A DNA stretch of 39,661 nt, taken from contig JAJRSS010000180.1 of NCBI GenBank assembly GCA_024278615.1, positions 1 through 39,661 on the forward strand. Reading direction: 5' to 3'. This document shows, piece after piece, positions 37,327 to 39,661 of this stretch (position 1 is its first letter; each line of letters starts with the position of its first letter). The translations under genes were made by a program, and so were the position numbers. Under the pieces are notes generated by a model. The model was not told the DNA's origin. It worked only from the letters and a program-made list of their open reading frames with translations, and did no database searches. Source of the stretch: Alphaproteobacteria bacterium. GTDB lineage: Bacteria; Pseudomonadota; Alphaproteobacteria; Rhodospirillales; 2-02-FULL-58-16.

Positions 37327-38343
37327 TTACACGGCCGACCGCAAATCAGCCGGGAAGGCCCGTAGATCATCGTCGGTAAACGCATACTGCGGCAGGCGCT
37401 CACGGACGAGTTTTGCGACCAGTTTCGCTTGTTCCAAGTCACGAAACTTTTTGACCGGATCGCGGTTGGGTTGCTCGCAGAGCCATGCTTTATGAAGGGC
37501 AAAGGCGCGTGGATCGGGTACGACCATACGGACGGGATAACCACTCCCGTCTATCGCGATTGATTCCAAACGTGGGCTGCTGATAAGCCATTCCAATCCT
37601 CTTATTGGCGCCGCCGTAAGATCATCCGCCCCGCCGATCCGTTCGGGGTCAGTAGGCTTCCATGGAGGATCGGAAGGCTTCCATGGAGGATCGGATTCCG
37701 GCCGAATAAGGTCCACCATATAGCCCTCTCGGTTGATGGCCCTGTACTCTTTCCCTTCTTGACGGGAAAATGATTTATCGACCCTCTGGAGCATGCCGAG
37801 AATCCCTTCCCGGGAATAATCGGAGACCGCCAGGCGCAAGCGGCTTCGGCTATCCCATAAAATATCCAGATCACTTGCGGCCAGAGCCTCGCCGGAGAAA
37901 AAAACACCCGCCAGCGCCTCATAACCGTAGATAGCGTTGGTGCCAACGATTAGGACGTTTCGCCCCAACAAGCCGGTATCATCAAGGCGGCGGCAGACCC
38001 GGGCGACCAATAATGGAACCCTGCCTAAAAGCGTTGCCTTGTTGACTTTCGCAAGATGGTTGAGTTGACCCTTGATTGTATTGAGCCGGTCTTTCAGGGC
38101 ATGCTTGCCGGATACGAATGCGTTGCGGGTCTCCTCTGTCTTCGCGGAACGCGCACCCAACCCCACATCGCCTCCGAGACCGTTGGAGCGAACCAGGTAT
38201 TCCTTACCCCTCACTTCCTTCCAACGCATGCTGCCACGATAACGCTTGGCCAGTTCCCTTTTTGTCGCGGTGAGGACCTCGAATTGCTGGCGCGTATCGA
38301 CTAGCTGACGGCGTTGTTCTGAATTTAAATCTTTGAATTCCAT
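37327..38343 (-). CDS. GSU2403-like nucleotidyltransferase-fold protein
   Basis: From ATG 38343 (MEFKDLNSEQRRQLVDTRQQ) the protein has 338 residues. A helical, basic N-terminal part (about 1-115) precedes a minimal nucleotidyltransferase domain: VLIVGTNAIYGYEALAGVFF (G-T-N helix) and the acidic pair ASDLDILWDSRSRL, then EGYMVDLIRPES. The C-terminal part contains RLESIAIDGSGYPVRMVVPD, FALHKAWLCEQPNRDPVKKF and DLEQAKLVAKLV, the pattern of the GSU2403/NTP_transf_8 group. Function is unknown; related folds occur in toxin-antitoxin and defence loci. An upstream ATG at 38376 is rejected because it falls in the -10 element; ATG 38343 has GGAAAAG just before it. Composition is more AT-rich than core genes. 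Confidence 0.8.
   Translation of the reverse strand: MEFKDLNSEQRRQLVDTRQQFEVLTATKRELAKRYRGSMRWKEVRGKEYLVRSNGLGGDVGLGARSAKTEETRNAFVSGKHALKDRLNTIKGQLNHLAKVNKATLLGRVPLLVARVCRRLDDTGLLGRNVLIVGTNAIYGYEALAGVFFSGEALAASDLDILWDSRSRLRLAVSDYSREGILGMLQRVDKSFSRQEGKEYRAINREGYMVDLIRPESDPPWKPSDPPWKPTDPERIGGADDLTAAPIRGLEWLISSPRLESIAIDGSGYPVRMVVPDPRAFALHKAWLCEQPNRDPVKKFRDLEQAKLVAKLVRERLPQYAFTDDDLRAFPADLRSAV
37654..37695 (-). repeat. perfect 21-bp in-frame tandem duplication
   Basis: AGGCTTCCATGGAGGATCGG plus A occurs at 37654-37674 and again at 37675-37695 without mismatch. On the coding strand it duplicates seven codons, giving SDPPWKPSDPPWKP just after the acidic nucleotidyltransferase motif region. The absence of differences suggests a recent duplication. 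Confidence 0.95.
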
Positions 38344-38347
38344 TACT

Positions 38348-38403
38348 TTTCCGGTAACGCACTGGATTTTTACCATAATACAGGAAAAGGCTTTTATGTC
38401 AAT
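38348..38403 (-). promoter_or_regulatory. proximal promoter with palindromic operator (copy A)
   Basis: On the minus strand TTGACA (38397-38402) and TATTAT (38375-38380) are 16 bp apart, a strong sigma70-type promoter. An inverted repeat, TTTTCCGGTA (38347-38356) with TACAGGAAAA (38379-38388, one mismatch), covers the region from the -10 to the ribosome site. The expected leader is only about 25 nt before ATG 38343, so a protein bound here could block both transcription and translation start. Confidence 0.65.
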
Positions 38404-38458
38404 AGGTTAGACTAAACATCAGTTATGCCCGTAAAATAACCATCTGTAATAAGTGACG

Positions 38459-38514
38459 TTTCCGGTAACCAGCCTAAATTTGAGCGTAATACCGGAAAAC
38501 GTTTTTATATCAAT
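38459..38514 (-). promoter_or_regulatory. distal duplicated promoter with palindromic operator (copy B)
   Basis: This 56-bp segment is 42/56 identical to copy A and lies exactly 111 bp upstream of it on the coding strand. TTGATA (38508-38513) and TATTAC (38486-38491) are 16 bp apart. The inverted repeat TTTCCGGTA (38459-38467) with TACCGGAAA (38490-38498) is perfect. Between B and A only tiny frames exist (for example ATG-initiated MVILRA), so B either gives a longer leader or is the relic of a duplicated gene start. Confidence 0.6.
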
Positions 38515-38528
38515 CGAGTAATATATAT

Positions 38529-38679: not shown

Positions 38680-39661
38680 TCATTCAGCATTTTCTTCGTC
38701 AGCTAATTCGGTCAATAGATCAAGATTGCGCACCCGATCCCGGAAGGCCTTATCGAAATTTCTAAGCGTCTCATCGAACCACGCGAATTGCCCAGGCCAA
38801 TCCTCTTCGTTGGATGGGTCCGTTTGCAGTCGACGAAGCAGAACACGAGATGCTATGCGACCGGGTAGTTTTCGCCAGTCAAGCGCCGCGCCGATTGTTG
38901 CCTCGATGGCCTCTTTGTCTTCCAATAATTGATCAATACAGGTACCGTTTGGGTCCCGGCGAATGTAGAGTTCCACGGCGATGGATTTTTCCTGAACACT
39001 CGCGAGCGCGCCCAGCCTTAGTCCGCTCCGTCCGATCCCAAAATTGTACCAGTGCTGCGGGCGCGGAGCTTGCAGGCGCAACGGGTTGTTGCTGGCGTTC
39101 AGATGCTCTCTCAAACCCGTCCAGTAACGGAGATATGTAGCCTTAGTTTCCGTCAGTTCTTCCTCGCTCAGGCGTCTCGCGGCCTGGCTGACCGAACGAG
39201 ACCAATCGTTGGGCTTGGAGATGACGTTGAACTTCGGTGCGGGCGGCGATTCCCCTATGCGCCATAATTCCACCTCCAATCCGAAAAAACGGAAGCTGTC
39301 GTCGGTGATGTCGTTCAACCAGTCGAGGGTCGCACGGTGTTCGTCGGTGAAGTTGGCGGCGATCCATACAATGGTGACGACGTGGAGCCCAGCGGCGTAT
39401 GTGAGCAACTGGCCGAGATGGATGTGATCCGTCCTCTCCAACTGGTTCTCGATCAGCACCCAGGAACTGTCATCGGTATTCTTGCAGAGAATATCAGCGC
39501 GGAACGGCCCCACGCTCTTCTCCTGGGCCTCGACTTCCAGGTCCATGTTTATGGTCTCTGCCAAGACCTTCAGATTTTCTTCCCGAGCAAGCCACGGCGT
39601 GAAGTCTTGGGCCTCTGTCGCCCAAATGTCGCGGAGGTCAACGCGTTGAAGGCGGCCTAAC
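38680..39661 (-). CDS. DUF4268 nuclease-like protein (N-terminus beyond right edge)
   Basis: The minus-strand frame is open to the window edge; the visible 327 residues begin LGRLQRVDLRDIWATEAQDF, close to the family start, so few residues are missing. The N-terminal half has LEVEAQEKSVGPFRADILCK with an Asp, and WVLIENQLERTDHIHLGQLL, where an E-x-Q pair stands in the place of the ExK of PD-(D/E)XK nucleases, then TYAAGLHVVTIVWIAANFTD and EHRATLDWLNDI. The C-terminal DUF4268 part includes YNFGIGRSGLRLGALA and FDETLRNFDKAFRDRVRNLD. Such proteins are often encoded beside type I restriction genes; the adjacent HsdR stub fits. Function unproven. Confidence 0.85.
   Translation of the reverse strand, partial: LGRLQRVDLRDIWATEAQDFTPWLAREENLKVLAETINMDLEVEAQEKSVGPFRADILCKNTDDSSWVLIENQLERTDHIHLGQLLTYAAGLHVVTIVWIAANFTDEHRATLDWLNDITDDSFRFFGLEVELWRIGESPPAPKFNVISKPNDWSRSVSQAARRLSEEELTETKATYLRYWTGLREHLNASNNPLRLQAPRPQHWYNFGIGRSGLRLGALASVQEKSIAVELYIRRDPNGTCIDQLLEDKEAIEATIGAALDWRKLPGRIASRVLLRRLQTDPSNEEDWPGQFAWFDETLRNFDKAFRDRVRNLDLLTELADEENAE

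What the first reader, a model, noticed from the sequence alone, without database searches (positions are those of the whole stretch)
38344..38528. Duplicated promoter-operator pair 111 bp apart driving a nucleotidyltransferase-fold gene
Two 56-bp segments, 42/56 identical, each combine TTGAYA-N16-TATTAY with a TTTCCGGTA...TACCGGAAA palindrome. In the proximal copy the palindrome overlaps the ribosome site and the leader is about 25 nt. This is the architecture of tightly autoregulated toxin-antitoxin or defence genes, yet no antitoxin or regulator gene is visible, so the protein itself or a distant factor may bind.
Basis: partly seen in the sequence, partly recalled or inferred. Interest (0 to 1): 0.65.

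Follow-up and report, generated by a model that had tools for sequence, protein, structure and literature searches.

The report
Self-operator of an orphan nucleotidyltransferase gene
An uncharacterised toxin-like enzyme gene carries two copies of a 40-bp mirror-image DNA site at its own promoter, and relatives across bacteria and phages carry the same site layout with different letters, so the protein most likely switches off its own gene and evolves its DNA code together with its site.

Summary
In detail: 44/59 bp repeated 111 bp apart, each copy holding a promoter-like pair and TTTCCGGTA-N22-TACCGGAAA (the proximal copy has one arm mismatch). It drives an orphan PF12281 (NTP_transf_8, 'GSU2403') gene whose start is ATG 38343. 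The key result comes from relatives. Of 29 family members below 60% identity, 22 have a spaced inverted repeat of about 40 bp ending at the start codon (shuffles: mean 0.5, maximum 2; control genes 4/50). The half-site letters differ by clade (TTTCCGGTA, TTTCAACA, TTATCCCT, TTTGTTGTC, TTTCGGTAT and others). Several clades also have two copies, and both copies carry the same letters. The site is essentially private to this gene in every genome searched. In a phage clade the operator changed from TTTCAACA to TTTCCACA in both copies on one branch. No neighbouring gene recurs. The best explanation is autorepression by the protein itself, probably through a basic N-terminal three-stranded-sheet domain fused to an AbiEii/MenT-like nucleotidyltransferase: AbiE-like control without a separate antitoxin. 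Binding, toxicity and defence are untested. The N-terminal domain has no detectable known relative, and the recognition-residue evidence (K42) is only suggestive. I found no literature on this family.

The parts
37327..38343 (-). PF12281 (NTP_transf_8, GSU2403-type) gene, 338 aa, start ATG at 38343
   Evidence: Pfam E 7e-61; start set by alignment with homologues MDFQELN../MSKFKEL... ORF listed from ATG 38376 is 11 codons too long.
38152..38232 (-). Codons 38-64: three-stranded sheet of the basic N-terminal domain (b38-44, b47-53, b59-64, between helices 8-34 and 67-103); candidate DNA-reading module, including K42
   Evidence: AlphaFold2 pLDDT 83-96 there (also confident in the shallow model). 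DNA-binding role is inference; K42 ranks 3rd of 325 columns for association with operator letters and is one of 14 columns fixed at an operator switch.
37366..38007 (-). Nucleotidyltransferase domain: GTNA (134-137) and D158xD160, with D211
   Evidence: Pfam boundaries; D158 and D160 >=90% conserved and D158/D160/D211 invariant; Foldseek nearest solved folds are nucleotidyltransferases 5uvd and TglT 6j7s (weak, E 0.0035 and 0.03).
38348..38387 (.). Proximal operator: arms 38348-38356 and 38379-38387, 22-bp spacer, 40-bp span; one arm mismatch
   Evidence: same layout at homologues' start codons.
38459..38498 (.). Distal operator: perfect TTTCCGGTA-N22-TACCGGAAA, arms 38459-38467 and 38490-38498
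38375..38402 (-). Proximal promoter-like pair TTGACA-N16-TATTAT; upstream arm lies in the spacer and overlaps the first two bases of the -10 box
   Evidence: Consensus 11/12.
38486..38513 (-). Distal promoter-like pair TTGATA-N16-TATTAC (weak -10), same relation to its operator
   Evidence: Read from sequence; not called by the scan.

Best explanation
A self-contained autorepressor circuit. The gene encodes a two-part protein: a basic N-terminal helix/three-stranded-sheet/helix domain and a C-terminal nucleotidyltransferase (NTase) related to the AbiEii/MenT toxin fold. Dimers or higher oligomers of the protein bind a 40-bp operator made of two 7-9-bp half-sites about three helical turns apart, one against the -10 box and one against the start codon, and block RNA polymerase. 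A second identical operator upstream (111 bp here, about 66 bp in Bradyrhizobium and phages, about 81 bp in Phyllobacterium) tightens repression. The NTase is thereby kept low and can rise when repression is relieved, which suits a toxin- or defence-like effector carried on plasmids and phages without a separate antitoxin. SHOWN: the operator, its family-wide geometry, its lineage-specific letters, its privacy to the gene, the absence of a partner gene, and the fold class. INFERRED: binding by the protein itself, repression, the N-terminal domain as reader, and a toxin or defence role.
For: 22 of 29 members (<60% identity) have a scoring inverted repeat at the start codon versus mean 0.48, max 2 in shuffled sets and 4/50 unrelated gene starts (Fisher p 7e-10); at least three of the misses (L025, L043, L023) have one a little further from the called start. 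Span is 38-42 bp, and exactly 40 in all ten TTATCCC sites, where 38-42 was allowed. Letters differ by clade but match between arms and between the two copies of one genome. Sites elsewhere in the genome: none exact; one extra in about 43 Mb of Bradyrhizobium. On one branch of the phage clade the operator changed TTTCAACA to TTTCCACA in both copies; 14 of about 340 protein columns separate the groups, three of them at 42, 43 and 45 in the first sheet hairpin. K42 also ranks 3rd of 325 for association with operator letters family-wide. Solo gene with varying neighbours on 22 annotated plasmids; sporadic spread, 17/289 genomes of the class. Phage copies run antisense beside the tape-measure gene, like a moron with its own promoter. 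Fold.
Against: No binding or expression data. The N-terminal sheet as a whole is not enriched for operator-associated columns (p 0.84); phylogeny dominates that signal. The domain has no detectable relative of known function. Three of 29 members have no clear site (L024, L080, L082). NTase fold match to toxins is weak (E 0.03).
Confidence: 0.72

Rival explanations
1. A separate trans-acting regulator, encoded elsewhere by host or element, binds the operator.
For: Protein-DNA binding by the NTase itself is untested; AbiE-type systems use a separate antitoxin-repressor (PMC7319586).
Against: No conserved neighbour. The site occurs essentially only at this gene in whole genomes, so such a regulator would serve one gene and have no site at its own promoter. 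Letters change with the gene's own lineage, also in phages and plasmids that change hosts.
Confidence: 0.15
2. The inverted repeat acts in RNA: a hairpin over the start codon controls translation.
For: The proximal repeat ends at or covers the start codon in nearly all members; complementarity is kept while sequence changes.
Against: In the window the upstream arm lies between -35 and -10, so a transcript from the consensus promoter lacks it. The second copy is not near any start codon. Arm mismatches show no clear wobble excess (5 of 21 G-T type). A 9-bp stem with a 20-26-nt loop of fixed length has no obvious reason in RNA.
Confidence: 0.07
3. The repeats are substrate sites (recombination or end-processing) for the NTase or a mobile element rather than an operator.
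For: Mobile context; inverted repeats.
Against: Sites are only upstream, never flank the gene as ends, and sit at a fixed position relative to promoter and start codon in diverse contexts.
Confidence: 0.04

Closest known systems
AbiE / Rv2827c-Rv2826c type IV toxin-antitoxin promoters (PMC7319586)
   Same: NTase-fold toxin gene controlled through inverted repeats over the promoter; Rv2827c has two sets of repeats; sites are specific, with no cross-binding between AbiEi and Rv2827c repeats.
   Different: There a separate AbiEi antitoxin (N-terminal winged helix) binds 23-bp repeats 3 or 13 bp apart. Here there is no second gene, half-sites are 7-9 bp with a 40-bp span, and the candidate binding domain is on the NTase itself and is a three-stranded sheet.
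MenT/TglT nucleotidyltransferase toxins (PDB 6j7s; PMC11375011)
   Same: NTase fold; nearest bacterial solved structure; conserved DxD.
   Different: Fold match is weak; different Pfam family; cognate MenA antitoxin genes lie alongside MenT, none here.
Controller-protein circuits of restriction-modification systems and phage repressors (from general knowledge)
   Same: Small autogenous regulator with two operators whose letters differ between specificities.
   Different: Those regulators are helix-turn-helix proteins without an enzyme domain.
Three-stranded-sheet DNA readers (Tn916 integrase N-terminal domain, plant AP2/ERF)
   Same: Predicted sheet-then-helix topology and basic charge (AlphaFold2 model).
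   Different: No sequence relationship found: scores no better than shuffled controls. Analogy only.

Membership tests
PF12281 NTP_transf_8 (GSU2403 family nucleotidyltransferase fold) | Match above the curated Pfam cut-off | tested here: met
   206 bits vs cut-off 26.3.
PF12281 NTP_transf_8 (GSU2403 family nucleotidyltransferase fold) | NTase active-site acidic residues (GT.A then DxD, third D) | tested here: met
   D158, D160 near-invariant; D211 invariant.
AbiE-type toxin-antitoxin | Adjacent AbiEi-type antitoxin/repressor gene | tested here: not met
   Upstream neighbour is DUF4268; no recurring partner in 22 plasmid loci.
AbiE-type toxin-antitoxin | NTase toxin of the AbiEii/DUF1814 family | tested here: not met
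   Pfam gives only PF12281; PADLOC no hit.
AbiE-type toxin-antitoxin | Inverted repeats over the promoter bound by the system's own protein | tested here: inconclusive
   Repeats present; binding not testable here.
AbiE-type toxin-antitoxin | Toxicity neutralised by a partner | not testable with these tools
   No experiment possible.
Known anti-phage defence system | Match to a curated defence model | tested here: not met
   No PADLOC hit for the NTase.
AP2/integrase-type sheet DNA-binding domain | Sequence or fold similarity to solved members | tested here: not met
   hhalign probability 0.7% and 0.1%, below shuffles; no Foldseek match to a DNA-binding domain of this type.

The most novel reading that the evidence does not exclude
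PF12281 proteins are single-gene, self-silencing NTase effectors: toxin, repressor and operator form one movable unit. The N-terminal sheet is a new DNA-reading fold whose code diverges quickly, so that different lineages form separate immunity-like specificity groups, with operator-bound protein possibly also catalytically silent.
Probability: 0.2. Interest if true: 0.8.

Novelty: new variant of a known kind. Interest (0 to 1): 0.62.

Why it matters
A large, unstudied family of NTase-fold genes on chromosomes, plasmids and phages gains a testable mechanism: own operator, own reader, no antitoxin. The many natural operator versions with one geometry, and a one-branch operator switch with only 14 separating protein positions, make protein-DNA code-breaking directly testable and would add a regulated orphan class to the AbiE/MenT toxin world.

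Tried and rejected
Searching other genomes for the window's own letters alone would have missed the family, because the letters differ; the search was done through homologues instead. The AP2/integrase-domain idea was tested by Pfam, PDB profile search, hhalign with shuffled controls and Foldseek and is not supported. Family-wide association between protein columns and operator letters is dominated by phylogeny and not enriched in the sheet. The first AlphaFold2 run was too shallow (pLDDT 48.7) and was replaced. No match in GenBank phages, though IMG/VR contigs have relatives. Viral scans with three further queries found none. Literature searches for GSU2403, PF12281 and NTP_transf_8 found nothing on this family.

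Full report
OBSERVATION. The duplicated segments exist as described: 38345-38403 and 38456-38514, 75% identical, 111 bp apart; the best 59-bp self-match in 300 shuffles was 32/59 against 44/59 observed. Each copy holds, on the minus strand, a promoter-like pair with a 16-bp spacer and a TTTCCGGTA-N22-TACCGGAAA inverted repeat. The distal repeat is perfect; the proximal one has one mismatch. The proximal pair is a near-consensus promoter (11/12), the distal pair is weak. The pattern is unique in the 3.46-Mb genome. With three mismatches allowed, only these two sites score 0 or 1; other matches (one with 2 mismatches, the rest 3) are about as frequent as matches of the reversed control.

GENE. 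The gene is PF12281/NTP_transf_8. Alignment sets the start at ATG 38343, so one arm of the proximal operator abuts the start region and the other abuts the -10 box. It is the only PF12281 gene in the genome.

THE FAMILY-WIDE OPERATOR. Homologues came from genome collections, plasmids and viral contigs. Almost all carry a spaced inverted repeat whose inner-gene arm ends at or over the start codon, with a 38-42-bp (mostly 40-bp) span and arms that begin TTT or TTA. The rest of the arm differs by clade: TTTCCGGTA (window), TTTCAACA (Bradyrhizobium), TTATCCCT (Phyllobacterium plasmids and another alphaproteobacterial genus), TTATCTATA, TTATGCA, TTTGCCACT, TTTCCCACT, TTTACCTGT, TTTGGTA, TTTGTTGTC, TTTCGGTAT, TTTCAGTAT, TTGTCCCGT and more. 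In 29 members below 60% identity, 22 pass a score that shuffled sets reach 0.48 times on average and at most twice; 4 of 50 unrelated annotated gene starts from the same loci pass (p 7e-10). L025, L043 and L023 miss only because the site lies somewhat upstream of the start used. L024, L080 and L082 lack a clear site. More distant PF12281 members have a related but shorter repeat (GTTATACT arms, span about 28-34 bp).

TWO COPIES. Duplication recurs: about 66 bp apart in Bradyrhizobium, about 81 bp in Phyllobacterium and L038, about 69 bp in phage contigs, 111 bp in the window; also in distant members L058, L098, L099. In each genome both copies carry the same letters, so they evolve in concert.

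PRIVATE SITE. In six Bradyrhizobium records the operator occurs only at this gene, with one extra site in an unrelated context (G749:C150). In two complete 4.7-4.8-Mb genomes and four Phyllobacterium plasmids it occurs only at this gene, each time with exactly 40-bp span although 38-42 was allowed. Reversed-pattern controls gave none. This argues against a regulon or a host regulator.

A NATURAL OPERATOR SWITCH. Within phage contigs, a strongly supported clade of five (100/100) has TTTCCACA while its relatives and Bradyrhizobium have TTTCAACA; the change affects both repeats. Only 14 columns of about 340 separate the two groups, including 42, 43 and 45. Position 42 is K in the CC group and A/I/L/M/N/S/T/V in the CA group, and ranks third of 325 columns for association with operator letters in the whole family. 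As a whole, however, the sheet region is not enriched (p 0.84). I treat position 42 as a lead, not as proof.

PROTEIN. A good AlphaFold2 model (pLDDT 84.6, pTM 0.83) shows helix 8-34, strands 38-44, 47-53, 59-64, helix 67-103, then the NTase domain. Nearest solved folds are NTases, including the toxin TglT (Rv1045), weakly. The N-terminal domain matches nothing by Pfam, PDB profile, hhalign or Foldseek. It is strongly basic (sequence 28-52 holds ten K/R).

CONTEXT. Neighbours differ at every locus. Spread is sporadic: 8/100, 17/289 and 38/398 genomes at order, class and phylum level, and 134 plasmids. In the phage contigs the gene runs opposite to tail genes next to the tape-measure gene, as expected of a moron expressed from its own promoter.

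MECHANISM. Steps shown: operator, geometry, co-variation with lineage, privacy, no partner, fold class. Steps inferred: own-protein binding, occlusion of RNA polymerase at the -10 box and start region, cooperative action of two operators, and a toxin- or defence-like NTase output. The closest characterised circuit is AbiE and especially Rv2827c, with two sets of inverted repeats and no cross-recognition between systems (PMC7319586). Here the repressor would be built into the NTase. It is not filed as an AbiE member: the antitoxin gene and the AbiEii family match are both absent.

VERDICT. Real, ordered and informative; autoregulation likely; function of the enzyme open. New variant of a known kind (autoregulated NTase effector).

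Noticed in passing
window 38680-39660, minus strand: Upstream neighbour is a DUF4268 protein that matches PADLOC candidate defence family PDC-S11 (E 6e-126); not conserved beside other PF12281 genes.
   Followed up: partly
window 37655-37696: 21-bp perfect-looking tandem duplication inside the gene giving DPPWKPSDPPWKPTDP; relatives have one PPWK unit.
   Followed up: no
L088-L097, L103-L108 (IMG/VR contigs): PF12281 gene sits antisense between tail genes of related phages, always with two operators: a probable moron.
   Followed up: partly
L114 1501-1540 (G749:C150:5937-5976): One extra TTTCAACA-N24-TGTTGAAA site in a Bradyrhizobium genome, not next to a PF12281 gene.
   Followed up: partly
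L099 and L101 (same IMG/VR contig): Two apparently identical distant PF12281 copies with two operators each on one 36.8-kb contig; duplication or assembly effect.
   Followed up: no
L058, L018, L081: C-terminal fusions of PF12281 to DUF1488 (L058, L018) or a KfrB domain (L081).
   Followed up: no
L048, L050: An in-frame TGA interrupts the homologue's match in these genomes: decayed copies or misalignment.
   Followed up: no
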